64,000 bases of DNA from Janthinobacterium sp. CG3 (GTDB taxonomy: Bacteria > Pseudomonadota > Gammaproteobacteria > Burkholderiales > Burkholderiaceae_D), in the NCBI RefSeq assembly GCF_000344615.1, contig NZ_KB467824.1, forward strand, positions 542,445 through 606,444, written 5' to 3'. Each line of letters begins with the position of its first letter. The first letter of the stretch is position 1. A program made the translations under genes and the position numbers. The notes beneath the pieces were generated by a model, which was not told where the DNA came from, made no database searches, and saw only the letters and a program-made list of their open reading frames with translations. Positions 29,529 through 46,456 of this stretch are shown piece after piece.

Positions 29529-29752
29529 TGTGCAAAGCCGTTTGTAGTGGAATCGGTGGCGCAGTATTGCAGTGCACAACGGCGTTTGTGAACGATTAAT
29601 TCCGTCTTTGCTTATGCGTAAATCCGAAGTGCACGCCCGTGGCGATATCCAGAAAACACATATCGAAGCGCGAAAGCATTCGTTCTGAATTTGCCGCGCC
29701 GGACTTAATCTGTCCTCTGAAACGACGCACCACCATCACGGAGAGATCGCAC

Positions 29753-30427
29753 ATGAACATACTATTATTAAGCGGTAGCCCGCAGATTCCATCCAGCTCC
29801 AGCCGCCTGCTGTTGCACGTCGGCGAGCAGATGGCGCTGCACGGCCACCGCACCAGCAAGCTGCATGTGCGCGACCTGCCGGCCAAGGCCTTGCTGCACG
29901 CCGACTTCGCCGACGTCACGATAGCGCGGGCCATCGCCGCCGTCGCCGCGGCCGACGCCGTCGTCATCGCCACGCCGGTCTACAAGGCCTCCTACACCGG
30001 TATCCTGAAAGCCTTCCTCGACCTGCTGCCACAAGACGGCCTGGCCGGCAAGCTGGTGCTGCCGCTGGCCACCGGCGGTAGCCAATCGCACATGCTGGCG
30101 CTGGACTACGCGCTGCGCCCGGTGCTGCACGCGCTGGCCGCCAAGCACGTCCTGACCAGCATCTATGCCACCTCCGAGCAGCTTGAATGGAGCGAGCAGG
30201 GCGGCCTGGCGCTGGCGCCGGCGATCGCCGCGCGCGTCGGCGCCGGCGTCGAAGAACTGACGGCGGGACTGCGCACGCTGCGGCTGGCGCGCGCCACCGC
30301 GCCGCAACCCGACATCGATACCAGCGCACGGCCGGGGCGGTCGTTAAAGGACCTCCCGTACAGCCAGGTGCCGCCAACCCAATTAGAGCCAGAGACAGCG
30401 AGCCGGGGTGAGCCCCTCGGGGTCTGA
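29753..30427 (+). CDS. ssuE: NAD(P)H-dependent FMN reductase SsuE
   Basis: 224 residues; GGAGAGATCGCAC precedes the ATG. Flavodoxin-like fold: LLLSGSPQIPSSSSRLL, then ATPVYKASYTGILKAFLDLLPQDGLAGK, the SsuE signature. It supplies reduced FMN to SsuD and perhaps to the neighbouring NtaA-like and SfnB-like enzymes. Family proteins end near residue 180-190. Here the tail (PPTQLEPETASRGEPLGV) is encoded by an inverted-repeat element that also provides the stop codon. It is first in the plus-strand ssuEADCB set. Confidence 0.88.
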   Translation: MNILLLSGSPQIPSSSSRLLLHVGEQMALHGHRTSKLHVRDLPAKALLHADFADVTIARAIAAVAAADAVVIATPVYKASYTGILKAFLDLLPQDGLAGKLVLPLATGGSQSHMLALDYALRPVLHALAAKHVLTSIYATSEQLEWSEQGGLALAPAIAARVGAGVEELTAGLRTLRLARATAPQPDIDTSARPGRSLKDLPYSQVPPTQLEPETASRGEPLGV

Positions 30428-30455
30428 TCCCAGGGTCACGCTTCTGGTTCTAAAT
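30381..30455. repeat. Imperfect inverted repeat fused to the ssuE 3' end
   Basis: The outer arms AATTAGAGCCAGAG (from 30380) and CTTCTGGTTCTAAAT (to 30455) are near-complements. Inside is CCGGGGTGAGCCCCTCGG and then GGGTCTGATCCCAGGGTCACG (to 30440). The ssuE stop codon (TGA, 30425-30427) lies in the GGTCTGATCC motif. A related motif (GGGTCTGACCCCAGGGTTACG) recurs at about 33491-33511, upstream of ssuB. Confidence 0.6.
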
Positions 30456-30488
30456 CTACATCGCGCCCCCGAACATTCAAGGAAAAAC

Positions 30489-31469
30489 ATGAGCACGCGT
30501 CACGAAATTCGCCTATCCCGCCGCCACGTATTGGGTCTGCTGTCCGCCGCCGCGGCCGGCGCGCTGGCGGCCGGCCTGCCCGGCGCCGCGCTGGCCCAGT
30601 CCAAACCGGTGCTGCGCATCGGCTACCAGAAATACGGCACGCTGACCCTGCTGAAAGGCCGCGGCACGCTGGAAAAACGCCTGGCCGCCAAAGGCGTCGA
30701 CGTCAAATGGACCGAATTCCCCGCCGGCCCGGTGCTGCTGGAAGGGCTGAACGTCGGCAGCATCGACTTCGGCACCGCCGGCGAGGCGCCGCCGATCTTC
30801 GCGCAGGCCGCCGGCGCTGATTTGGTCTACGTCGGCAACGAGCCGCCGTCGCCGTCGAGCGAGGCGATCGTGGTGCCGAAGGATTCGAAAATCCGTACGC
30901 TGGCCGATTTGAAAGGCAAGCGGGTGGCGCTGAACAAGGGCTCCAACGTGCATTTCCTGCTGCTCAAGGCGCTGGAAAAGGCCGGCGTCGGCTACCGCGA
31001 GATCGAGACCGTGTTCCTGCCGCCGGCCGACGCCCGCGCCGCCTTCGAGCGCGGCAGCGTCGACGCCTGGGCGATCTGGGACCCGTTCCTGGCGGCCGCC
31101 GAAAAGCAGTTGGGCGCGCGCGTGCTGGCCGACGGCAAAGGGCTGGTGTCGAACCACCAGTTCTACCTGGCCGCGCGTTCCTACGCCGAAAAAAACCAGG
31201 AAATCATCCGCATCGTCATCGACGAACTGGCCAAGGTCGACGAATGGGGCCGCGTCAACCAGAAGGAGGTCGCCGCCGTGCTGGCGCTGCAAACCGGACT
31301 TGATCCGGCCATCCTGGAACTGGCCGCCGCGCGCTACGCCTATGGCGTCAAGTCGGTCACGCCGGACGTGGTGGCGCAGCAGCAGAAGGTGGCCGACGCG
31401 TTCTCGGCGCTGAAGTTGATCCCCAAGCCGATCAACGTCAAAGACGCGCTGCTGTCATTCAAGTTGTAA
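30489..31469 (+). CDS. ssuA: Aliphatic sulfonate ABC transporter substrate-binding protein SsuA
   Basis: 326 residues from the ATG at 30489. The N-terminus LSRRHVLGLLSAAAAGALAA is a twin-arginine signal, so export is by Tat. The mature start KPVLRIGYQKYGTLTLLKGRG, the GSIDFGTAGEAPPIFAQAAG block and GKRVALNKGSNVHFLLLKAL are SsuA hallmarks. It captures alkanesulfonates in the periplasm for SsuBC. ssuD follows after 18 bp. Confidence 0.92.
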   Translation: MSTRHEIRLSRRHVLGLLSAAAAGALAAGLPGAALAQSKPVLRIGYQKYGTLTLLKGRGTLEKRLAAKGVDVKWTEFPAGPVLLEGLNVGSIDFGTAGEAPPIFAQAAGADLVYVGNEPPSPSSEAIVVPKDSKIRTLADLKGKRVALNKGSNVHFLLLKALEKAGVGYREIETVFLPPADARAAFERGSVDAWAIWDPFLAAAEKQLGARVLADGKGLVSNHQFYLAARSYAEKNQEIIRIVIDELAKVDEWGRVNQKEVAAVLALQTGLDPAILELAAARYAYGVKSVTPDVVAQQQKVADAFSALKLIPKPINVKDALLSFKL

Positions 31470-31487
31470 TGTAAAAGGAAGAGAAAA

Positions 31488-32636
31488 ATGTCGTTGAATG
31501 TCTTTTGGTTTATCCCTACGCACGGCGACAGCCGCTACCTTGGCACCACCCAGGGAGCGCGCCCGGTCAACGCCGACTACCTGCGCCAGTGCGCGGTGGC
31601 GGCCGATACGCTCGGCTACGACGGCGTGCTGCTGCCGACCGGACGCTCCTGCGAGGACGCCTGGGTGGTGGCGTCGTCGCTGATCAGCGTGACGCAAAAA
31701 TTGAAATTCCTGGTTGCGATCCGGCCAGGCCTGACGACCCCGGGCCTGGCGGTGCGCATGGCCGCCACCTTCGACCGCCTGTCGAACGGGCGCCTGCTGA
31801 TTAACGTGGTGACGGGCGGCGACCAGGGCGAGCTGGAGGCCGACGGCCTGTTCGCCGACCACGCCAAGCGCTACGAGATTTCCGACGAATTCATCCGCGT
31901 CTGGCGCGCCACGCTGGCCGGCGAGGGCGGCGCCGCCGGCTACGACTTCGAGGGCAAGCATATCCAGGTGCGCGGTTCCAAGACGCTGTACCCGGCGGTG
32001 CAGAAACCGTATCCGCCGCTGTACTTCGGCGGCTCGTCCGAGCCGGCGCACGAGCTGGCGGCGGAGCAGATGGACGTCTACCTGACCTGGGGCGAGCCGC
32101 CGGCCGCCGTGGCCGAGAAGATCGCCGACATCCGCGCCCGCGCCGCCAAGCGCGGCCGCACGGTGCGCTTCGGCATCCGCCTGCACGTCATCGTGCGCGA
32201 GACCAACGAGGCGGCCTGGCGCGCCGCCGACGAGTTGATCAGCCACCTCGACGACGACGTCATCGCGGCGGCCCAGGCGGCGTTCGGCAAGATGGATTCG
32301 GAGGGCCAGCGGCGCATGGCCGCGCTGCACGGCGGCCGCCGCGACAAGCTGGAAGTGTCGCCCAACCTGTGGGCCGGCGTCGGCCTGGTGCGCGGCGGCG
32401 CCGGCACCGCGCTGGTGGGCGACGCCGAAACGGTGGTGGCGCGGATGCAGGAATACGCCGACCTCGGCATCGACACCTTCATCTTTTCCGGCTACCCGCA
32501 CCTGGAGGAATCGTACCGCTTCGCCGAGCTGGTGTTCCCGCTGCTGGGCAAGGGCAGGGACCACGGCGAGCAGTCGCTGAGCGGCCCGTTCGGCGAAGTC
32601 ATGGCGAGCAACATCCTGCCGAAAAAGGCGGCTTGA
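31488..32636 (+). CDS. ssuD: FMNH2-dependent alkanesulfonate monooxygenase SsuD
   Basis: 382 residues, full family length. N-terminal [22 protein letters not shown], active-site C53 region ([10 protein letters not shown]), [30 protein letters not shown] and the [20 protein letters not shown] tail are all characteristic. It oxidises C1-C10 alkanesulfonates to aldehyde and sulfite with reduced FMN from SsuE. The ribosome site AAGGAAGAG lies close upstream. ssuC begins two bases after the stop. Confidence 0.95.
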
Positions 32637-32638
32637 GC

Positions 32639-33415
32639 ATGCGCGCCGGCCGCGTCAAAAGCGGGTTCGAGGCGTTCGCGCCGTGGGCGCTGCCGGCCGC
32701 GCTGGTGCTGGCCTGGCAGGTAGCGGCGCAGGCCGGCTGGCTGTCGAGTCGCATCCTGCCCGAGCCGTGGGCCGTGGTTAAGGCGTTCTGGAACCTGGCC
32801 GAATCGGGCGAACTGTGGGTGCACCTGAAGACCAGCCTGTGGCGCGCCACGGTCGGTTTCGCCATCGGCGCCGGGCTGGGCCTGGCGCTGGGGCTGCTGA
32901 CCGGCAGCGTGAAACGGGCCGAGACGCTGCTCGACACGACGTTGCAAATGATCCGCAACATCCCGGCGCTGGCGCTCATTCCGCTGGTGATCCTGTGGTT
33001 CGGCATCGACGAGACGGCGAAGCTGTTTCTGCTGGCGGTGGGCGTGTTCTTCCCGGTCTACTTGAACACCTTCCACGGCATCCGCTCGGCCGACCAGGGC
33101 TTGATTGAAATGGCCAAGAGCTACGGCCTGTCCGGCTGGCCGCTGTACCGCGACGTGATTTTGCCGGCGGCGCTGCCGTCGATACTGGTCGGCGTGCGCT
33201 TCTCGCTGGGACTGGTGTGGGTGCTGCTGATCGTCGCCGAAACCATCTCGGCGCAGGCCGGTATTGGCTACATGACGATGAACGCGCGCGAATTCCTGCA
33301 AACCGACGTTGTGCTGGTGGGGATACTGCTGTACGCGCTGCTGGGGAAATTCGCCGACGTCTTCTCGCGCCGGCTGGAGCGGTATTGCCTGCGCTGGAAT
33401 CCGGCTTATCGCTGA
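32639..33415 (+). CDS. ssuC: Aliphatic sulfonate ABC transporter permease SsuC
   Basis: 258 residues, ATG two bases after the ssuD stop. About six membrane helices. The EAA-loop region (MAKSYGLSGWPLYRDVILPAALPSILVGVRFSLG) is the conserved contact with the ATPase, and IGYMTMNAREFLQTDVV is a SsuC/TauC feature. It forms the inner-membrane channel for sulfonates. Confidence 0.93.
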   Translation: MRAGRVKSGFEAFAPWALPAALVLAWQVAAQAGWLSSRILPEPWAVVKAFWNLAESGELWVHLKTSLWRATVGFAIGAGLGLALGLLTGSVKRAETLLDTTLQMIRNIPALALIPLVILWFGIDETAKLFLLAVGVFFPVYLNTFHGIRSADQGLIEMAKSYGLSGWPLYRDVILPAALPSILVGVRFSLGLVWVLLIVAETISAQAGIGYMTMNAREFLQTDVVLVGILLYALLGKFADVFSRRLERYCLRWNPAYR

Positions 33416-33430
33416 ACTGGAACCGTCGAC

Positions 33431-33511
33431 GCCAGTCGGGTTACGCCCTGGCGGGCTAACCCGACCTACGAATAGCGCTAACTCGTAGCCGGGTCTGACC
33501 CCAGGGTTACG
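33431..33511. repeat. REP-like repeat plus GGGTCTGACCC motif between ssuC and ssuB
   Basis: The first part (33431-33471) reads GCCAGTCGGGTTACGCCC then GGGCTAACCCGACCTACG, the same hairpin core as elsewhere. The second part (from 33485) reads GTAGCCGGGTCTGACCCCAG and matches the motif at the end of ssuE. It separates ssuB from the otherwise compact ssuEADC genes by 125 bp. Confidence 0.75.
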
Positions 33512-33540
33512 TCGACGCCGCCTAACTTAACTGGATATAT

Positions 33541-34395
33541 ATGATCTTCGCACCCGCCCAACTTGAATCCGACTTCCTGTCGCTGCTGATTCCAGCGGCC
33601 GTCGCCGAGGCGCCGCCGCGCGTTCCCAAGGCGCGCCAGGGCGTGCCGCTGACCCTGCGCGGCCTGTCGAAAGCCTACGCCGCGCGCACGGTGCTGAAAG
33701 ACGTTGGCCTTGAACTGGCCGCCGGCGAATTCGTCGCCGTCGTTGGACGCAGCGGCTGCGGCAAAAGCACGCTGCTGCGCACCATCGCGCAATTGGAGCA
33801 GCTCGACGCCGGCAGCATCGTCGTCGGCAGCGGCCGCAGCAAGCCCGAGGTCCGCATCATGTTCCAGGAGGCGCGCCTGCTGCCGTGGAAAACCGTGCTT
33901 GACAACGTCGCGCTGGGTTTGCCGCGTTCGGTCGGCGCGGCCGCCGCGGCGCTGTGGACGGTGGGGCTGGCCGAGCGCGCCGACGACTGGCCGGCGGCGC
34001 TGTCGGGCGGCCAGCGGCAGCGCGTCGCGTTGGCGCGCGCGCTGGTACACGAGCCGCAATTGCTGCTGCTCGACGAGCCGCTCGGCGCGCTCGACGCGTT
34101 GACGCGGATCGAGATGCAGCAGTTGATCGAATCGCTGTGGCTGACGCGCGGCTTCACCGCCGTGCTGGTCACGCACGACGTGGCGGAGGCGGTGGCGCTG
34201 GCCGACCGCGTGATCCTGATCGAGGACGGCCGCATCGCGCTCGACGTCAAGATCGACCTGCCGCGCCCGCGCGCGCGCGGCAGCGCGGCGTTTGCCGCGC
34301 TTGTGCAACGCATACTGGCGCATGTGCTGGAGCATCCGGCGGTCGTGGAGCGGGCGGCACCGACGCCGCTGGCGCAGCTGCGCTGGGCGATTTGA
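33541..34395 (+). CDS. ssuB: Aliphatic sulfonate ABC transporter ATPase SsuB
   Basis: 284 residues. Walker [11 protein letters not shown]-loop [11 protein letters not shown] (the EARLLPW form is typical of SsuB/TauB), signature [15 protein letters not shown], Walker [13 protein letters not shown] and H-loop VTHDVAEA are intact. An N-terminal extension of ~35 residues precedes the ATPase. It powers sulfonate import with SsuA and SsuC. Its translation signal is not obvious, and the preceding repeat may weaken coupling with ssuC. Confidence 0.92.
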
Positions 34396-35894: not shown

Positions 35895-38800
35895 TCAGGG
35901 CGTGAAGTATTGCCGCCGCTGGTGCTGGCCCTGGTGCACCGGGAACATGGTGGCGTAGAACTCGGTCCAGCCGCCCATGCGCACCCGCACCAGGTTGTAG
36001 CGCTCGGGATCGTTGGTCGCCGCCTGGTAGGTGCCCAGGTCGGCGCAGGTCAGCGTGATCAGGTTGGAACCGGTCTCGCCGCGGGCGTAGGCTTTGACGA
36101 AGCGTTGCAACTGGTCGAGCGGGAAATCCTCCTCGATGTTCATGTCCACCGGCGAGGCGTTCGACAGGCCGTGTTCGATCGATTCGACGCGCCAGCTTTG
36201 CAGCGACTGGTAGATGTTGCGGAAGGCGGGCGCGGCCGGCAGGTCTTGCGGCGCCGGCACCGGCGACAGGTCGGAGGCGATCGGCATGCCGTTGCGGCGC
36301 CCGTCGGCCGAGGCGCCGCAGCCCAAGCCGTCGCCGACATAACCCTCGAAGGTGCCGATGCCCGGCGTGATGACGAAGTCGAACTCGCCGTAGGTCTGGG
36401 CGATGCCCGCCAGCGCGCCTTGCAACGCCGGGTGCGGCTTGCGGATCACCTCGACGCAGGTGCGCACCAGGTTGTCCATCACCCAGGTGCCGAGGGCGTC
36501 GACCTCGCTGTGGCCGCTGCCCCATTTCGGCAGCGCCAGCGCGATGTCGCGCAGTTCCTGGTAGCGCCGGCCGCGTTCGCCGGCGTCGGCCGCGCCCAGC
36601 AATTGGCTCTGGTAGGGCTCGACCATGGTGTAGCCCCAGTCGTTGATCAGGCAGTCGAGCAGTTCGGGCAGGGTGGTGACGGCGGTGGCCGGGTCGAACA
36701 CCAGTTTTTGGATCGCGTACAGCGAGTCGATGGTGTTCGAGGCGCCCACGCACAGCGGCGCGATCATGTTGAACTTGGCGCCGCCGTTGGTCAGGTCGCG
36801 GCCGGATTCGGTGCAGCCTTCGATCAGCGCCGATAGCAGCGGGCTCGGGCAGATGCCGGCCAGCGCGCCGAAGCCGCTCAGGATGGTGTTGTAGCTCTGG
36901 ATCGTGATCCATTCGAGCTGGCGCAGGAATTGCTCTTGCAGCATGGCGAAGCTGGCGATGGCGGCGGCCGGCGGCGAACGGAAGGTCTGTTTCAGGCCGC
37001 GCAGGTAGACCGGGCCGGCCGCGCCGTAGCAGGCGCCCTGGTTGAGCGCCTGCTCCAGCGCCGTCATCGGCGTGACGTTGTTGAAGGAAAAGCCGGTGGC
37101 GCCGGCCAGCATCGGTTCGTAGCAACCGTCGGCGGCGTAGTTGCGCGACCAGGCCAGCGAAACGTCGCCGGAATCGCGCAGCGCCTGGCACAGGCGGTCG
37201 TCCTGGTAGAGGATCGGATGGGCGCCGCCGGCCAACAGGCATTTGGCGGCCTCGTCCATGATCTCGTCGGGAATGCCGTCGTACACCCGCAGCGACAGCG
37301 TCGGCGCGTTGACCGGGATGCGCCGCGCCGCCTTCAGGCACAGCATCGTCACCGGGTTCACGCCGCCGGTCGGCAGCGCGTCGTCGTTGGCGACGTAGCC
37401 GCCGACGGTGATTTGCTGGACCCACTGGTTGATGCCGCCGCCCTGGGGGAAGTTGCCGCCGTAGCCGCACACGGCGGTGGTGCCGTAGTTGACGTAGTCG
37501 GTGATGTCGGCGCGGTTGGCGAAGGCGTTTTCACCGATTTTCAGCCACAGGCAGTCGATGATGTCCTGGGCCCGCTCGGGCGTGACGTTGTCGAGGCGCA
37601 GCAGCGGCCACAGGATCTGGTCCAACCGCCCCAGCGACGTCAGTTCGCCGACCAGGTGCAGGCAGCAGTGGAAGGAGTACACCAGTTGCACGCCGTCCTG
37701 GAAACTGGCGGGCGGCTGCTCGCGCAGGCGGCGCAGGCGCGCGGCCACGGCGCGCATATTCTCGGCGCCGTCGGCGCCGCTGTCGCCGGCGGCGTCGGCG
37801 GCGGTGGCGGCGGCGTCGGCCAGCTCGGCCCAGTTGGCCAGGTAGCCTTGCACCGCTTGCAGCGACACCAGCGCCGACTGGTGGAACTGCAGCTGGTCGC
37901 GCGCGGCGGCGTCGTCGGGCTTGCCGCTCAGCCGGCTGGCGCTGGCGGCGACGCAATCTTGCATCTCCTCAATCAGGCCGTTCAGGCCGCGCTGCACCAG
38001 TTTCTCGTAATTCGGCACCACGTGGCCCATCGCCGACCACTCGTTCAACTGGCCCTTGAGCCAGGCGGCCACGGTTTCATCCTCGCTCAGGTAGGGCAGC
38101 ACTTCCTTGCCGCGGCCCAGTGTGAAGTCGGGAATCACGCCGACGATCAACTCCTCCGGGTAGATGCGCAGCAAGCCGTTGTGGCGGGCGATCTCGGAAC
38201 CCGGACTCGACAGCAAGTCGGTCAGCGTGTAGCGGTTGGCGTTGGCCTTGCGCAGCGCCACCGGCTGGTCCGGCGCGCCGGCCGCCGGGTCCAGTTCGGC
38301 CAGGTGCGGCAGGCGCGGGAACGGGGTGCGCTTGAGCCAGCCGTCGGACCAGTGCGAGAAGGTGCGCGCGAGCAGGGCCAGCAGGCGCGGCGACGGCGGA
38401 TCGCCGGCCACGTACTTGCCTTCGCTCATCTGGTGCAGATAGTCTTGCGAGTTGTAGAACATGTAGCCGTTCGGGCTGCGCACGTTCCAGTGTGGGTCTT
38501 CCCGCACGTCGTCGAGGGCGGCCGACGGCACCGACAGCTCGCGCGCGTTCGGCACGTACCAGTAGCTGCCCGCGACGCCTTGCACCACGCTCATCAGGCG
38601 GTCGGCCGGGCGGTCCGGGCGTTCGCCCATCATGTGCCGGATAATGGTTTCAAAGCGCGGCTGGGCGCCGCAGAAGCCGACGAACATCAGCCCTTTTTCG
38701 CGCGCGGCGCTGCCGGCGTGCTCGCCGAAGGGCAGGGCCTGGCGCAGCAGCTTGAGGTTGTCGCCGTTGCTGTCGAGCACGTGGACGCGGTGGATGTGGG

Positions 38801-39434
38801 CGTTGCGGTCGTGCTGCGGCAGCATCGCGCCGTGGGTGTCGCGGCCCAGCATGGCGTCCTGCGCGTCGGGCAGCATGTCGGCGATGCTGCCCCATTCGAA
38901 CAGGAATTTTTGGGTGAAGCCGAAGCTGGCGCCGCGGAACTCGCCGTCGACCAGGATGTCGCTGGCCAGGCTGACGGGATCGTTCGGATTGGTGATGCCG
39001 TCGAGGTAGCGCCCGCCCATGACCTTGCCGTCCGGGCGCTTGCCCAGCGGTAGGATTTCAATCTCGACCGCGAGCGCCTCCAGCGCGGCGCGCACCTCGC
39101 CCATCAGACGGGCGGCGGTGGCGGCGCTGCCCGACTTGACATACAGCAGCACGTCGCCGCCAGTGTCGCGCAGCTTGGGCGAGTTGTTCAGCACCGTGCG
39201 CGAGACCGGAATGTCGCGCCCCTGCCAGCGGCCCCACAGCTCGGGGTTGAAGGCCGCCACTAGGCCGGAGTTGTCGGGCGCCGCCTTGGCCTCCCTGGCC
39301 AGCAGGCGTATCAGTTCGAGCAGGGTCTGCTGGGTCGCCTCGGTGTGGTCGCGCAAGGTGATGGTGGCGATCTGGCCGAACACGGCGCGCGTCAACAGGC
39401 CGTATTGGGAGTGCTGGATGGCGTCGAACAACAT
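35895..39434 (-). CDS. Fusion: DyP-type heme peroxidase + glycyl radical enzyme (PFL-like)
   Basis: 1179 residues in one unbroken frame; AAGGA lies seven bases before the ATG. Residues ~1-310 are a DyP-type peroxidase: catalytic D145 in RYLDGITNP, likely proximal heme ligand H213 in AHIHRVHVLD, distal R231 in LLRQALPFG, then GLMFVGFCGAQPRFE and GSYWYVPNAREL. Residues ~400-1179 are a pyruvate-formate-lyase-type glycyl radical enzyme: YPEELIVGVIPDFTLGRGKE, LVGELTSLGRLDQILWPLL, thiyl cysteine C771 with E773 in DGCYEPM, and the radical site RMGGWTEF with G1155 24 residues from the end (PFL has a similar spacing). GCxE resembles the dehydratase/decarboxylase branches rather than the CC of PFL. The reaction is unknown. 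No radical-SAM activase is nearby. No signal peptide, so cytoplasmic. Confidence 0.85.
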   Translation of the reverse strand: MLFDAIQHSQYGLLTRAVFGQIATITLRDHTEATQQTLLELIRLLAREAKAAPDNSGLVAAFNPELWGRWQGRDIPVSRTVLNNSPKLRDTGGDVLLYVKSGSAATAARLMGEVRAALEALAVEIEILPLGKRPDGKVMGGRYLDGITNPNDPVSLASDILVDGEFRGASFGFTQKFLFEWGSIADMLPDAQDAMLGRDTHGAMLPQHDRNAHIHRVHVLDSNGDNLKLLRQALPFGEHAGSAAREKGLMFVGFCGAQPRFETIIRHMMGERPDRPADRLMSVVQGVAGSYWYVPNARELSVPSAALDDVREDPHWNVRSPNGYMFYNSQDYLHQMSEGKYVAGDPPSPRLLALLARTFSHWSDGWLKRTPFPRLPHLAELDPAAGAPDQPVALRKANANRYTLTDLLSSPGSEIARHNGLLRIYPEELIVGVIPDFTLGRGKEVLPYLSEDETVAAWLKGQLNEWSAMGHVVPNYEKLVQRGLNGLIEEMQDCVAASASRLSGKPDDAAARDQLQFHQSALVSLQAVQGYLANWAELADAAATAADAAGDSGADGAENMRAVAARLRRLREQPPASFQDGVQLVYSFHCCLHLVGELTSLGRLDQILWPLLRLDNVTPERAQDIIDCLWLKIGENAFANRADITDYVNYGTTAVCGYGGNFPQGGGINQWVQQITVGGYVANDDALPTGGVNPVTMLCLKAARRIPVNAPTLSLRVYDGIPDEIMDEAAKCLLAGGAHPILYQDDRLCQALRDSGDVSLAWSRNYAADGCYEPMLAGATGFSFNNVTPMTALEQALNQGACYGAAGPVYLRGLKQTFRSPPAAAIASFAMLQEQFLRQLEWITIQSYNTILSGFGALAGICPSPLLSALIEGCTESGRDLTNGGAKFNMIAPLCVGASNTIDSLYAIQKLVFDPATAVTTLPELLDCLINDWGYTMVEPYQSQLLGAADAGERGRRYQELRDIALALPKWGSGHSEVDALGTWVMDNLVRTCVEVIRKPHPALQGALAGIAQTYGEFDFVITPGIGTFEGYVGDGLGCGASADGRRNGMPIASDLSPVPAPQDLPAAPAFRNIYQSLQSWRVESIEHGLSNASPVDMNIEEDFPLDQLQRFVKAYARGETGSNLITLTCADLGTYQAATNDPERYNLVRVRMGGWTEFYATMFPVHQGQHQRRQYFTP

Positions 39435-39639
39435 GGCATGATCCTTTTCGTGGCGCGGCGGCGCCGGGAATGGTTGTGTGGGTTGTATTGCTGCAAGGAA
39501 AACAATTCTAATATAGTATTTACTGGAATTGTTGATATTTCATTTCCGGGGAACGAAAACGAAGGGCGTCGTTGGCGGTGGCGCAACGGACGCGGCTTTG
39601 AGCCGGGAATGGCGGACCACTGGCCCGGCTCAAAGCGTG

Positions 39640-41319: not shown

Positions 41320-43479
41320 ATGACCAATGACAATAGACGCGCCTTCCTGCGCAAAGCCGCCGGCGCCGGCGCCGCGGCCGCCACGCTTTCGCTGTTTCCG
41401 CCGGCCATACGCCGGGCTCTCGCCGTGCCGGCCAGCAACCGCACCGGCACCATCAAGGATGTCGAGCACGTCGTCATCCTGATGCAAGAGAACCGTTCCT
41501 TCGACCATTATTTCGGCACCTTGAAGGGCGTGCGCGGCTTCGCCGACCGCTTCCCCATCCCGCTGCCGGAGTCCGCCGCCATCGGCAAGCACAACGTCTG
41601 GTATCAGCTCAACGACAGCAACGCCGCGTTGCCGCGCGTAATCGCGCCGTTCCGCCTGAACACACAGCAATCCTTCGACTATATGCGCGTGTCGGGTACG
41701 CCGCACTCCTGGCCGAACGCCCAGGACGCGTGGAGCAACGGCATGCTCGACAGATGGCCTACCTATAAGCAAAACCATTCGATGGGGTATTTCACGGAAG
41801 CCGATATTCCCTTCCAATTCGCGCTGGCGAACGCGTTCACGATCTGCGACGCCTACTATTGCTCCTTCCAGGGCGGCACCAATGCGAACCGGGTGTACGC
41901 GTGGACCGGCGCCAACGATCCCTTGCAGCAAGGGCACGGCCCGGTGATCGGCAATAGTTACGACAACCTCGACCACGATCCGACCGGAGGCTACGCCTGG
42001 ACCACCTACCCGGAGCGCCTGCAGGCGGCCGGCGTCACTTGGCAGGTGTACCAGAACATGGACGACAACTTCACCGACAATCCGCTGGCCGGCTTCCGCA
42101 GCTTCCGCGAATCCTACGCCGGCGGGCGCAGCGCCGATCCGCAACTGCGCGAGCGCGGCCTGAGCACGCGCGACATCGACATGCTGAAGCAGGACGTGCA
42201 AAACAATAAGTTGCCGCAGGTTTCCTTTATCGTGGCGACGGCCGAGGGTTCCGAGCATCCCGGGCCGTCCAGCCCGGCCCAGGGCGCCGACTACACCGCC
42301 AGGGTGCTGGACGCGCTCACCGCGAATCCGGAGGTCTGGAGCAAGACCGTGCTGCTGCTGATGTTCGATGAAAACGACGGCTTCTTCGACCACGTGCCGC
42401 CGCCCGCCGCGCCCTCGTACGTGCGCTGGAATGCCGACCCGGCCCAGGCGACGCTGGCGGGCGCGTCCACCGTCAGCACCGCCGGCGAATACCACAATTT
42501 TGCCAGCGCCGAGTCGGGCGAGTCGGCCGCGCTGATGCACCGGCCCTACGGCCTGGGGCCGCGCGTGCCGATGTATGTGATCTCGCCGTGGAGCAAGGGC
42601 GGTTGGGTCAATTCCCAGGTGTTCGACCACACCTCGGTGATCCGCTTCCTGGAGCAGCGTTTCGGCGTGATGGAGCCGAACATTACGCCGTGGCGGCGCG
42701 CCGTCTGCGGCGATTTGAGCAGCGTCTTCAACTTCAGCGATCCCGACGGCGCCGCTTTCGCCGCCGCCTTGCCCGACACCAAGGCGCTGGCCCAGCGCGC
42801 CAAGCTACTGAGTTCGACGCGCACGCCGATCACGCCGGCCTTGCCGGAGCTGCCCAGCCAGGCCAGCGGCACCCGGCCGTCGCGGGCCTTGCCCTACGAG
42901 TTGCACGCCAGCGCGCGCGTCCACGCCGACACGGTGCAGGTTGAACTGTTGTTCGCCAACACCGGGACGGCGGCGGCGGTGTTCCATGTCTATGACAAGA
43001 TGAATTTGAAACAGGTGCCGCGCCGCTACACGGTGGAGGCGAACAAGGATTTGAAGGGCGCCTGGGCGCTGGGAGATCAACTCGGCGCTTACGATCTGTG
43101 GGTGCTCGGTCCGAACGGCTTCCACCGCCAGTTCAGCGGCAACGCCAACGCGTCGCGCACGGGGCCGAATCCCGAGATCCAGGTATGCTACGACGTCGTT
43201 AATGGCAGCGTGACGGTGAAATTGCACAACACCGGCGCCGCCGCGGCCACCTTCTCGGTGGGCGCCAAGGCGTATTTCGATCCGGCGCCGTGGATTGTCA
43301 GCGTGGCCCCGAACGGGACGGCGGAGCAGACCTGGCCCTTGTGTGACTGCGGCAACTGGTATGACTTCCTTGTGCAGGTGAAGGAGTTGCCGGCTTATGC
43401 GCGGCGCTTCGCCGGCCGTGTCGAGACCGGTAAGGACGGGATCAGCGATCCCGCGATGGGGGGCTTGGCCGTTAGCTGA
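41320..43479 (+). CDS. Phosphocholine-preferring phospholipase C, Tat-exported
   Basis: 719 residues. The N-terminus DNRRAFLRKAAGAGAAAATL is a twin-arginine signal. The phosphoesterase domain (~45-510) carries VVILMQENRSFDHYFGTLKGVRGF, DAYYCSFQGGTNANR and LMFDENDGFFDHVPPPAAP, diagnostic of the PlcN/PlcH family. Two C-terminal bacterial PLC domains (beta sandwiches, ~530-620 and ~630-705) follow. It hydrolyses phosphatidylcholine and related lipids outside the inner membrane, releasing phosphocholine for phosphate, carbon or nitrogen. No PlcR-type chaperone is adjacent. Confidence 0.93.
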   Translation: MTNDNRRAFLRKAAGAGAAAATLSLFPPAIRRALAVPASNRTGTIKDVEHVVILMQENRSFDHYFGTLKGVRGFADRFPIPLPESAAIGKHNVWYQLNDSNAALPRVIAPFRLNTQQSFDYMRVSGTPHSWPNAQDAWSNGMLDRWPTYKQNHSMGYFTEADIPFQFALANAFTICDAYYCSFQGGTNANRVYAWTGANDPLQQGHGPVIGNSYDNLDHDPTGGYAWTTYPERLQAAGVTWQVYQNMDDNFTDNPLAGFRSFRESYAGGRSADPQLRERGLSTRDIDMLKQDVQNNKLPQVSFIVATAEGSEHPGPSSPAQGADYTARVLDALTANPEVWSKTVLLLMFDENDGFFDHVPPPAAPSYVRWNADPAQATLAGASTVSTAGEYHNFASAESGESAALMHRPYGLGPRVPMYVISPWSKGGWVNSQVFDHTSVIRFLEQRFGVMEPNITPWRRAVCGDLSSVFNFSDPDGAAFAAALPDTKALAQRAKLLSSTRTPITPALPELPSQASGTRPSRALPYELHASARVHADTVQVELLFANTGTAAAVFHVYDKMNLKQVPRRYTVEANKDLKGAWALGDQLGAYDLWVLGPNGFHRQFSGNANASRTGPNPEIQVCYDVVNGSVTVKLHNTGAAAATFSVGAKAYFDPAPWIVSVAPNGTAEQTWPLCDCGNWYDFLVQVKELPAYARRFAGRVETGKDGISDPAMGGLAVS

Positions 43480-43546: not shown

Positions 43547-46456
43547 TCAGGCGAGTAGCTTTAGTCCGGGCGGCAGCGCTTCGCCCAACATGCGCCGCTC
43601 GCTGGCCTGGTCCAGTTGTACCACTTCGCGCACCATCGCGGTCCAGCCCGGCGGCGCGTTGACGGCGGCCAGGCGGCGGAGGACGGTGTCGCGCAACGCT
43701 TGCGGGATGTCGCGCGTGCGGTCGCCCGTCATGCGCGCCATGTGGGCGGCGGCGAAGCCGGCCGGCTCGACGCGTTTCCAATCCAGCGCCAGCACGGCGT
43801 CCAGCCATTCCGCCACGACCTCGACCGGCACCACGTCGTGCGCGCTGCCGTAAAACGGCTGGCGCGCGCCGATCCTTCCCAGCGCCCACAGCCGGCGGGC
43901 GTCGATGCCCTCGGCATCGGCACCTTGCGCCGCGTCGGCGCCGCCCAGGCGGCCCAGCAGCCAGGCGCCGATTTCGCTTTTGTAGCTTCCCGGAATGCGT
44001 TCGAGCGAGGCGCCCAGGCGCATCATGTCGTCGTCGCCGCCTTTGACCAGCGTGACCGGACGCTGGCGTTGCTCCTCGGGGTCGGCTTGCAGGTTGAAGG
44101 CGAAGTCGTCGAGCAGGCGCAATTGTTGCGTGGCGTCCAGGCCGCCGCCGACGCGGCGCCACAGCGTCCACCATTCGGCGCAGACCTGGCTGTCCTTGTG
44201 GTGTTGCACGCCGGCGTCGAACAGCGTCCATAGTTGCTCGATTCGCCATTCGTCGAGCGGGCAGCCGAACCCCGGGCGCAGGCAGTAGCCGGCCAGGTTC
44301 AGCCAGGTCCGCTCGTGCTCGGCGGAACGGCGCCGGCCGCGCGCGCGTTGCAGCAGCGCGTCGAAGAGTTTGCGCAGCAGCGGCGTGTGCCAGTTTTCGC
44401 GCCCGCCGAGCAGCTTTTCCAAGTGCAGGCGCAATTGCTTGACTTCCTTCGCCGCCACTTGTTGCGATTTGCCGCCGAAGATGCGTTCGATGGCGGCCAA
44501 GGCTTCGGCCAGGCGCGGCGGCATGCTGGCGTCGTGTTCGGCGGCGTCGGCGCCGTCGCCGGCCTGGTCCTGGCCGCGCAGCTGGAATTCCAGCAGCCAG
44601 CGCTGGGCCGGGGCGGCGTCGCCGTCGGCCGCTACGCAATGCACTTCCAGCGTGCCCACTTCGGTCAGCGCGGTGGCCAGTTGCACCGGTATTTCATGTT
44701 TCTCGTCGCGCTTTTCGACCTGCTTGTCTTTCGATGCGCGCGCCCGCAGCACGGTGGCGATCGGCGGCAGGCGCACGTAGTCGCCCTGGTTCAGGTCGAC
44801 CAGTTCGCCCAGTTGCGGCGGCGTGCCGGCCTCGGCAATGGAGGAGGCGAGGTGGAAGCGCACCGGCCGTCCCAGGCGTAGCGCGAAGATGCGCTCCGTT
44901 AGGCGGATTTCCCGGCCCTGGGCGCTGCCGCGCGGCAGGATGCAGATGGCGCGCTGGACCCGCGCGGCGGCCGGCTGGCCGGGCCCCGGCTCTTGTGCCT
45001 TTTCTTGGTCCAGCACCAGGAAGTAGCTGCGCGGCGAGCCGCCGCCGATGGTCGGCGCCCGGCCCAGCCGGCCCAGCGCGTAGGCGACGCCGCCGCGCGC
45101 CACGGCGACGTCGGGGTTGTCGTTGTGTAGCAGGCGCAGCGGCGCGCCGCGCCAGTTGGCCAGGGTCGCTTGCAGGCGCCGCGCCAGCGCGTCGGCGCGG
45201 AACACGCCGCCGTTCAGCAGCAACGTGTCGGGAATGGCCGGCGCGGCGGCGTCGTCCAGGCCCAAGGCCTGGCGCGCCGCCGCCGCGTGCTGCCGCAAGA
45301 AGCTGGCCAGATGCCGGGTAATGGCGGCGTCGCTGGCGTAGGGCAGGCCGAATTCGACGATGCCGCCGCGGCCGCGCTTGGCCGTTTCGTCGGCGCCGAC
45401 CAGCGGGAAGAAGCCGTCGACGACCAGCCGTTCGACTTCGTCGCGCGTCAGTTCGACCGAGCGGCTGCCGCCGATCAGGCGCGCGCCGGCGCCGAGCAGG
45501 GTCACGCTGGCGCGTTCGGGCGCGTCGGCGGCGAGCAGTTGTTCCTTGGCGGCGCGGCAACGTTCCATCAGCTGCGACAGGCGCGCCGCCGACAGCCGCG
45601 CGGCCGGTTCGGACCCCGCTCCAGCCGTGGCCAGGCGGGCCTCGACCAGGTGCGCCAGCGCCAGGTCCATATTGTCGCCGCCCAGTATCAGGTGGTTGCC
45701 GACGCCGATGCGGGTGATCCGCGGTTCGCCGTCGGCCACTTCCACCTTGATGAGGCTGAAATCGGTGGTGCCGCCGCCGACGTCGCAGACCAGAATCAGG
45801 CGCGTTTGCGCCAGCTCCTGGTTCAGCGCGGCGCGATGGCGGTATAGCCAGTCATAGAAAGCGGCCTGCGGTTCCTCGAGAAAACGCACGCCGGGCAGGC
45901 CGGCCTGGCGCGCCGCCGCCATCGTCAGCGCGCGGGCGCCGTCGTCGAAGGAGGCCGGAATGGTCAGCACGACTTGCTGGTCTTCAAGGGGCTGTTGCGG
46001 AAAGCGCCAGTTCCACGCGGCGCGCACGTAGGCCAGGTAGCTGGCGCTGGCCGCCACCGGCGAGACCTTGGCGACCTCGCCCTCGGCGCCCCACGGCAGG
46101 ATGGACGCGAGGCGGTCGACGTGCGGGTGCGACAACCAGCTTTTGGCGCTGGCGACCAGCCGCCCGGGAACTTGCGCGCCCAGTTGCCGCGCCAGCGTGC
46201 CGACGACGACTTGGTCGATGCCCGCCACGTCGGCCTGCGGCCACGGCAATTGTAGTTCGCCGGGCGCCAGTTCGCCGGGGGCCGGATGGTAGCGCAGCGA
46301 CGGTAGCAGCGCGCGCGCGCCGACCTCGCCGGGCGCCAGCAGTTGTTCGATGTCGAACAGCTGGATCGCGTCCTTGCCCGGTGTGGCGCCTATTGTCGAG
46401 TAGGCAACGACCGTGTTGGTCGTGCCCAGGTCGATACTGACGACGTATTGCTTCAT
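43547..46456 (-). CDS. Hsp70-family ATPase with long C-terminal domain (DUF3731-like)
   Basis: 969 residues. The N-terminal actin-like ATPase (~1-420) has phosphate-1 loop SIDLGTTNTVVAYS and phosphate-2 loop VCDVGGGTTDFSLI (~223-236), plus LEEPQAAFYDWLY. A substrate-binding-like beta region follows (~490-640). The long helical C-terminus (~670-969, with RIFGGKSQQVAAKEVKQLRLHLEKLL and GRIGARQPFYG) matches the DUF3731 tail of large bacterial Hsp70 relatives. It is more than 300 residues longer than DnaK and has no DnaJ or GrpE partner nearby. Its start overlaps the stop of the second Hsp70 gene by ATGA. The client is unknown. Confidence 0.85.
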   Translation of the reverse strand: MKQYVVSIDLGTTNTVVAYSTIGATPGKDAIQLFDIEQLLAPGEVGARALLPSLRYHPAPGELAPGELQLPWPQADVAGIDQVVVGTLARQLGAQVPGRLVASAKSWLSHPHVDRLASILPWGAEGEVAKVSPVAASASYLAYVRAAWNWRFPQQPLEDQQVVLTIPASFDDGARALTMAAARQAGLPGVRFLEEPQAAFYDWLYRHRAALNQELAQTRLILVCDVGGGTTDFSLIKVEVADGEPRITRIGVGNHLILGGDNMDLALAHLVEARLATAGAGSEPAARLSAARLSQLMERCRAAKEQLLAADAPERASVTLLGAGARLIGGSRSVELTRDEVERLVVDGFFPLVGADETAKRGRGGIVEFGLPYASDAAITRHLASFLRQHAAAARQALGLDDAAAPAIPDTLLLNGGVFRADALARRLQATLANWRGAPLRLLHNDNPDVAVARGGVAYALGRLGRAPTIGGGSPRSYFLVLDQEKAQEPGPGQPAAARVQRAICILPRGSAQGREIRLTERIFALRLGRPVRFHLASSIAEAGTPPQLGELVDLNQGDYVRLPPIATVLRARASKDKQVEKRDEKHEIPVQLATALTEVGTLEVHCVAADGDAAPAQRWLLEFQLRGQDQAGDGADAAEHDASMPPRLAEALAAIERIFGGKSQQVAAKEVKQLRLHLEKLLGGRENWHTPLLRKLFDALLQRARGRRRSAEHERTWLNLAGYCLRPGFGCPLDEWRIEQLWTLFDAGVQHHKDSQVCAEWWTLWRRVGGGLDATQQLRLLDDFAFNLQADPEEQRQRPVTLVKGGDDDMMRLGASLERIPGSYKSEIGAWLLGRLGGADAAQGADAEGIDARRLWALGRIGARQPFYGSAHDVVPVEVVAEWLDAVLALDWKRVEPAGFAAAHMARMTGDRTRDIPQALRDTVLRRLAAVNAPPGWTAMVREVVQLDQASERRMLGEALPPGLKLLA

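What the first reader, a model, noticed from the sequence alone, without database searches (positions are those of the whole stretch)
35895..39434. DyP-type heme peroxidase fused to a glycyl radical enzyme in one 1179-residue protein
Seen directly: one unbroken frame with DyP landmarks (D145, H213, R231) in the first ~310 residues and a complete PFL-type glycyl radical enzyme in residues ~400-1179, including C771-x-E773 and the radical-site RMGGW (G1155) 24 residues from the end. Known of the families: glycyl radicals are destroyed by oxygen, and DyP enzymes use hydrogen peroxide. Joining them is chemically striking. Inference: the peroxidase may protect the radical domain, generate or quench the radical in place of a radical-SAM activase, or process the same substrate. 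I know of no described function for this architecture.
Basis: partly seen in the sequence, partly recalled or inferred. Interest (0 to 1): 0.93.

Follow-up and report, generated by a model that had tools for sequence, protein, structure and literature searches.

The report
Peroxidase-driven glycyl radical enzyme
One gene joins a heme peroxidase to an enzyme of the glycyl-radical type, and since most examined bacterial genomes that carry it show no known radical activator, the peroxidase likely starts the radical reaction with hydrogen peroxide, which would let air-breathing microbes use chemistry thought to need the absence of oxygen.

Summary
Confirmed: window 35895-39434 (-) is one 1179-residue frame; residues 7-302 have a DyP peroxidase fold, 341-1179 a glycyl-radical-enzyme (GRE) fold. 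It is not an assembly error: 115 of the 120 listed homologues (241 found) carry both domains, in several bacterial phyla and many ascomycetes. C771, E773, G1155 and W1156 are the same in 125 of 125 full-length rows, the DyP Arg too, the heme His in 124. The architecture is in print, function unknown (PMC5041501, passages).

New here: of 18 carrier genomes, 14 have no PflA, NrdG2 or NrdD match over cut-off, five of them 99-100% complete. The canonical GREs in these genomes lie beside their activases. No radical-SAM gene was found in 20 fetched fusion loci.

Best reading: the DyP heme replaces the radical-SAM activase. H2O2 would give Compound I, which would oxidise the G1155/C771 pair on demand, as class I ribonucleotide reductase does (recalled). 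The radical step and substrate are inferred. Against: the window's own genome holds one NrdG2 (beside NrdD), two myxobacteria hold NrdG-like proteins, and a putative activase is reported in Chaetomium.

The parts
35895..39434 (-). Whole gene: DyP peroxidase fused to a glycyl-radical-type enzyme, 1179 residues
38529..39416 (-). DyP domain, residues 7-302 by fold
35898..38414 (-). Glycyl-radical-enzyme fold, residues 341-1179
39000..39002 (-). D145, distal acid of the DyP site (Asp 115, Glu 9, Asn 1 of 125 rows)
38796..38798 (-). H213, predicted heme-iron ligand (124 of 125 rows, one gap)
38742..38744 (-). R231, distal Arg of the DyP site (125 of 125)
37116..37124 (-). C771-Y772-E773, predicted thiyl-radical Cys and acid/base Glu (C and E 125 of 125)
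35967..35978 (-). M1153-G1154-G1155-W1156: predicted radical Gly1155 and the invariant Trp after it (GGW 125 of 125)
39501..39533 (.). Imperfect inverted repeat upstream of the gene (13-nt arms, 85%); possible operator, untested

Best explanation
The protein is a DyP-type heme peroxidase fused to a glycyl-radical-type enzyme, and its peroxidase half is predicted to replace a radical-SAM activase by using hydrogen peroxide to start the radical in the other half. Shown: both folds (by model) and both sets of catalytic residues are kept across phyla, and 14 of 18 carrier genomes have no PflA, NrdG2 or NrdD match over cut-off. Inferred: H2O2 turns the heme into Compound I; its oxidising power passes along conserved Trp/Tyr residues (candidates the same in 125 of 125 rows: W181, Y293, W362, W366, Y448, W671, W933, W1156) to the G1155/C771 pair; the C771 thiyl radical then attacks a still unknown substrate with E773 as acid/base. 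The radical would be made on demand rather than stored, so that it could work in air, much as class I ribonucleotide reductase starts its cysteine radical (recalled).
For: Catalytic residues of both halves invariant or nearly so. Fusion kept in 115 of 120 listed homologues. 14 of 18 carrier genomes lack PflA, NrdG2 and NrdD over cut-off, five of stated completeness 99-100%; in the 13 of these with any PflA-model match at E<=0.001 the best one is MoaA, PqqE, QueE, RlmN, a quinohemoprotein maturase or AmmeMemoSam rSAM, and the 14th has none. Canonical PFL (2) and NrdD (3 genomes) in the same 18 genomes lie next to PflA or NrdG2, so the search finds activases where expected. No radical-SAM gene in 20 fetched fusion loci. 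NrdD absent from 15 of 18 carriers, which suggests aerobic life (inference). Fungal fusion gene induced 3-fold by H2O2 and 18.5-fold by peroxyacetic acid (PMC5041501, passages). A B-type DyP has a tyrosyl radical that derives from its peroxidase cycle (PMC8154254, passages).
Against: The window's own genome has NrdG2; 4 of 18 carriers have PflA or NrdG2. Two of 8 further myxobacteria have NrdG-like proteins below the NrdG cut-off. PMC5041501 reports a putative PFL activase in Chaetomium; fungal genomes could not be searched here. The PFLE/PFLC model was run in the own genome only and the NrdG model in no whole genome, so a divergent activase could be missed; Fer4_12 has matches over its low cut-off in all 18 genomes and only the stronger ones were inspected. 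In KpDyP, Compound I is stable, added H2O2 did not increase the protein radical, and its radical Tyr is said to be conserved only in enterobacterial enzymes. D145 is Glu or Asn in 10 of 125 rows. No distance, heme binding or activity was measured.
Confidence: 0.45

Rival explanations
1. The barrel is activated in trans by a radical-SAM protein (NrdG2, an NrdG-like orphan, or an unrecognised activase), and the DyP half processes the substrate or product or removes peroxide.
For: NrdG2 in the own genome, G393 and G394; PflA in G392 and G394; NrdG-like proteins in G480 and G517; putative PFL activase in Chaetomium (PMC5041501).
Against: 14 of 18 carriers show none of PflA, NrdG2, NrdD over cut-off. 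Each PflA or NrdG2 over cut-off has its own canonical GRE or NrdD beside it, none lies near the fusion.
Confidence: 0.25
2. The barrel no longer does radical chemistry; it serves as a scaffold or substrate-binding domain for the peroxidase.
For: No activase in most carriers; Gly_radical PF01228 not matched; fingerprint Val replaced by Met/Thr.
Against: C771, E773, G1154, G1155, W1156 and H471 the same in 125 of 125 rows, which a mere scaffold would not need.
Confidence: 0.17
3. The peroxidase is a guard that destroys H2O2 to protect a conventionally activated glycyl radical.
For: Peroxide induction of the fungal gene; DyP residues conserved.
Against: It is oxygen that adds to the glycyl radical and cuts the chain (PMC9576991, passage), and DyP does not remove oxygen; it leaves the missing activases unexplained.
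Confidence: 0.08

Closest known systems
DyP-B/PFL fusion of ascomycetes and proteobacteria (PMC5041501, 2016, passages read; it cites Strittmatter 2014, not read)
   Same: Same architecture: N-terminal DyP, C-terminal PFL domain; transfer between proteobacteria and ascomycetes inferred there
   Different: That paper leaves the function open and assumes a PFL activase; the activase survey and the residue counts over phyla are added here
Glycerol/diol dehydratase and choline TMA-lyase type GREs (1r8w, 5i2g, 5fau)
   Different: Below every NCBIfam GRE cut-off; fused DyP; R-M/T-G-G-W in place of RVXG[FWY]; no activase beside it
B-type DyP peroxidases (KpDyP 6fks, V. cholerae 5de0, 5vj0)
   Different: Stand-alone enzymes; here fused in front of a radical barrel; first Gly of GXXDG replaced
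Class I ribonucleotide reductase (works-like only, recalled)
   Same: An oxidant from O2 or peroxide starts a Cys radical in a related barrel through aromatic residues
   Different: Uses a separate metal/tyrosyl subunit, not heme; no membership claimed

Membership tests
Glycyl radical enzymes (PFL-like) | PFL-like domain and barrel fold | tested here: met
Glycyl radical enzymes (PFL-like) | Mid-chain catalytic Cys (CxE) and C-terminal Gly aligned with known ones | tested here: met
   C771, E773, G1155 in 125 of 125 rows
Glycyl radical enzymes (PFL-like) | Exact fingerprint RVXG[FWY] (as given in PMC11528403) | tested here: not met
   R-M-G-G-W in 120, R-T-G-G-W in 5 of 125 rows; PF01228 not listed
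Glycyl radical enzymes (PFL-like) | Partner radical-SAM activase, usually encoded nearby | tested here: not met
   None in 20 fetched loci; PflA or NrdG2 over cut-off in 4 of 18 genomes only, each beside a canonical GRE or NrdD
Glycyl radical enzymes (PFL-like) | Glycyl radical by EPR | not testable with these tools
   experiment needed
Named GRE families (PFL, CutC, HypD, sulfopropanediol dehydratase, HPAD, indoleacetate decarboxylase) | NCBIfam curated cut-off | tested here: not met
   Best TIGR01774 179.9 vs 678.2; the others listed are far below too
DyP-type peroxidases | Family model over cut-off and fold | tested here: met
DyP-type peroxidases | Exact GXXDG motif | tested here: not met
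   R-Y-L-D-G in the window, R or H at the first Gly in the 34 rows shown; D145 itself D 115, E 9, N 1 of 125. A solved DyP also departs at this Gly (PMC8230527, abstract start in the listing)
DyP-type peroxidases | Proximal His and distal Arg | tested here: met
   H213 124 of 125 (one gap), R231 125 of 125; aligned to solved DyPs
DyP-type peroxidases | Heme content and H2O2 turnover | not testable with these tools
   experiment needed
DyP-B/PFL fusion (PMC5041501) | N-terminal DyP joined to C-terminal PFL domain in one chain | tested here: met

The most novel reading that the evidence does not exclude
A third way to start radical chemistry in the GRE/ribonucleotide-reductase barrel: a heme peroxidase in the same chain makes the Cys/Gly radical from H2O2, with no S-adenosylmethionine and no activase. 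It works in air and is used by bacteria of several phyla and by ascomycete fungi.
Probability: 0.4. Interest if true: 0.94.

Novelty: new variant of a known kind. Interest (0 to 1): 0.78.

Why it matters
Glycyl radical enzymes are held to be closed to aerobes, because oxygen adds to the radical and cuts the chain (PMC9576991, passage), and to need a dedicated radical-SAM activase (PMC11528403, passages). A conserved family with the radical residues intact, no known activase found in most carrier genomes examined, and a peroxidase in the same chain makes both statements directly testable. It would give this chemistry an oxygen-compatible form and would give B-type DyPs, whose biological substrate is still to be identified, a built-in electron donor. 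A radical enzyme switched on by peroxide would also be easier to use than present anaerobic ones (inference).

Tried and rejected
Assembly or frame error: rejected. Operon partner: with a crude gene caller (it missed the fusion gene itself in L014) no neighbour is shared by more than two of 14 loci. The shared ones are L006/L008 (same genus), a TonB-receptor-like gene in L013/L016, a phosphoesterase (PF04185) in L015/L016, and one gene in L013/L018. The window's phospholipase C, two genes away, is 23-25% identical to the L015/L016 ones. The ssu-like cluster of the window is not found by the fusion elsewhere, apart from an unrelated-looking ABC ATPase match in L008. Substrate by residues: E773 and H471 are kept, but no substrate can be assigned. 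Papers: searches (open-access library only) gave one paper on the fusion, PMC5041501; none seen on activation without an activase. The fungal 'PFL activase' it names could not be examined; that such fungal proteins may belong to another radical-SAM family is recalled only, and one search gave nothing usable on it. The AATTC/GAATT pattern upstream in the window occurs in 5 of 104 loci, at the fusion gene only in the own genome's L005 and L035.

Limits and rows dropped: one search used 111 of the 120 listed proteins (9 under 1100 aa left out) and 14 loci; not used were L006-L008 and L012 (species already among the proteins), L016 (stops), L017 (partial), L035-L040, L068 (same gene as L014), L072 and L074 (truncated, no DyP). 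L012 was left out of the genome counts as the likely duplicate of G186. The 20 loci count two genes twice (window = L035; L012 = L038), and L035-L040 carry only about 1.5 kb on each side. Its three motif hits (L007; L012 = L038) were judged spurious by eye. L100, L102, L103 and L105-L112 were classed by eye, not by HMM; L101 had no NCBIfam match at E<=1e-40. NrdD, NrdG2, Fer4_12 and PFL-like models were not run in the 8 further myxobacteria; L080, L082, L083, L086-L092 and L094-L097 were not run against HMMs. P0110, one of five homologues without a DyP hit, lies on a 200-kb contig and may be a barrel-only form or a mis-called start. In VIA-align and Foldseek lists absence of other folds was not used as evidence.

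Full report

It is a real family. A protein search gave 241 relatives; the best 120 are listed and 115 of those hold both Pfam domains. The five others start at residues 250 to 469 of the query; they may be fragments, though P0110 lies on a 200-kb contig. Names in the list include Collimonas, Janthinobacterium, Massilia, Chromobacterium and Andreprevotia, many ascomycetes (Xylaria, Fusarium, Chaetomium, lichens), Chloroflexota and Bacteroidota. Genome scans add Pseudomonas cichorii, Paracidovorax, Azohydromonas, Archangium and several metagenome bins, and 9 of 147 genomes of Archangium's class. Distribution is patchy: 6 of 392 genomes of the window's own family, itself included. In a quick tree of 45 rows the fungi form one clade beside the betaproteobacterial one; a second group joins Chloroflexota, Bacteroidota, a Rhodobacter bin and myxobacteria; a third holds a second myxobacterial copy with a Marinobacterium bin (some branches long, midpoint root).

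The active sites are intact. In 125 full-length rows C771, E773, G1154, G1155, W1156, R231 and H471 are the same in all; H213 in 124 with one gap; D145 is Asp in 115, Glu in 9, Asn in 1. The Glu rows include the second myxobacterial copy and Marinobacterium. Profile alignment puts G1155 on the Gly of RVAGY of glycerol dehydratase and C771/E773 on its Cys and Glu. The motif is R-M(T)-G-G-W, close to but not equal to the fingerprint RVXG[FWY] given in PMC11528403 (passages). Of 30 positions examined, eight Trp/Tyr are the same in all 125 rows (W181, Y293, W362, W366, Y448, W671, W933, W1156); W671 follows a 7-residue stretch absent from glycerol dehydratase and aligns there with Met. That they form a relay is inferred.

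The activase test. GREs get their radical from a dedicated radical-SAM activase and are typically encoded near it (PMC11528403). The window's genome (G000, 6.27 Mb, 100% complete) has 19 Radical_SAM stretches in 18 proteins: MoaA (2), LipA, HemN (2), HemW, BioB, RimO, MiaB, PA0069 family, RlmN-like (2), YgiQ, UDG-linked, a KamA-like one below cut-off, QueE, NrdG2, and one unclassed 506-residue protein. No PflA and no PFLE/PFLC passes the cut-off. NrdG2 stands beside NrdD. The fusion is the only PFL-like protein there.

Over 18 carrier genomes: PflA passes its cut-off in 2 (both Andreprevotia, each beside a canonical PFL), NrdG2 in 3 (G000, Massilia G393, Andreprevotia G394), NrdD in the same 3. 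That leaves 14 of 18 with none of these. Five of the 14 are of stated completeness 99-100% (G201, G117, G130, G186, G217; all in the window's family, two genera). Completeness is not given for the other nine: four isolates (Paracidovorax, Azohydromonas, P. cichorii, Archangium) and five metagenome bins, of which G401 carries a copy with two in-frame stops and G402 a partial one at a contig end. One of the 14 (G395) has no PflA-model match at E<=0.001; in the other 13 the best is MoaA (6), a quinohemoprotein maturase (2), RlmN (2), PqqE, QueE or AmmeMemoSam rSAM. Fer4_12 has matches over its low cut-off in all 18; the stronger ones in the 14, as far as inspected, are SPASM-type maturase-like, MoaA- or QueE-like. 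The PFLE/PFLC model was run only in the own genome and the NrdG model in no whole genome.

In a further 8 genomes of Archangium's class no PflA passes the cut-off; two hold NrdG-like proteins below the NrdG cut-off (83.6 and 104.0 vs 126.1 bits), three hold AmmeMemoSam rSAM, and one carries a 5'-truncated copy without DyP. NrdG2 and NrdD were not searched in these 8. The canonical GREs in the first 18 genomes act as a positive control: each lies next to its activase. The fusion does not in any locus seen: no radical-SAM gene in 20 fetched loci (three motif hits judged spurious by eye), and no neighbour shared by more than two of 14 loci.

How it most likely works. A radical barrel with its residues intact, without a known activase in most carriers examined and tied to an enzyme that makes a strong oxidant from H2O2, points to the peroxidase as the activator. 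Steps inferred: H2O2 gives Compound I; the oxidant moves along aromatic residues; G1155 and C771 share the radical; C771 attacks the substrate. Making the radical on demand would avoid a standing glycyl radical, which oxygen cuts, an injury said to preclude such enzymes in aerobes (PMC9576991, passage). KpDyP, a B-type DyP, has a tyrosyl radical that comes from its peroxidase cycle; but its Compound I is stable, added H2O2 did not increase the radical, its radical Tyr is said to be conserved only in enterobacterial enzymes, and the authors suggest that a substrate-induced change may be needed (PMC8154254, passages). The Chaetomium fusion gene rises 3-fold with H2O2 and 18.5-fold with peroxyacetic acid (PMC5041501, passages), which fits a peroxide-driven enzyme but also an antioxidant.

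What weighs against it. The own genome does have NrdG2. PMC5041501 reports a putative PFL activase in Chaetomium, and I had no way to look into fungal genomes. Absence is judged with models of known activases. No chemistry has been measured. I therefore put the mechanism at 0.45 and keep trans-activation (0.25), loss of radical function (0.17) and a guard role (0.08) open.

Place among the known. The architecture was published in 2016 (and, as cited there, 2014), with its function open. By sequence and fold each half is homologous to its superfamily, but the exact GRE fingerprint, the partner activase and the strict GXXDG of DyP were tested and not met. I file it as a new variant of a known kind: a GRE-type barrel that probably works like one, with a different way of being switched on.

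Noticed in passing
window 39501-39533; L036, L037, L039, L012 upstream of the fusion gene: Inverted repeat upstream of the gene in the window; in the four Collimonas-type loci a different palindrome around CTGTCAAATTTGACAG lies upstream (read by eye). Possible operators, not shared between the genera.
   Followed up: partly
window 29639-34395 (+): Gene row of FMN reductase, substrate-binding protein, luciferase-like monooxygenase, ABC permease and ABC ATPase, like an alkanesulfonate (ssu) cluster; not conserved next to the fusion elsewhere.
   Followed up: partly
L015 13592-15124; L016 8062-9690; window 41320-43479: A PF04185 phosphoesterase lies beside the fusion in a Rhodobacter bin and close upstream in a Kordia bin; the window has a distant relative (phospholipase C type) two genes away.
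   Followed up: partly
L075 (Archangium second copy), L069-L071, L073, L018: A second, diverged clade of the fusion in myxobacteria and a Marinobacterium bin has Glu in place of the catalytic Asp of the DyP site.
   Followed up: partly
L074 1519-3468: Genome G448 holds a 649-residue copy without DyP and without the front of the barrel; it looks like a 5'-truncated gene.
   Followed up: no
L079, L084: NrdG-like proteins of 218 and 205 residues, below the NrdG cut-off, in two myxobacterial genomes that carry the fusion.
   Followed up: partly
window 43547-46456 (-): A 969-residue Hsp70-like protein with a C-terminal DUF3731.
   Followed up: no
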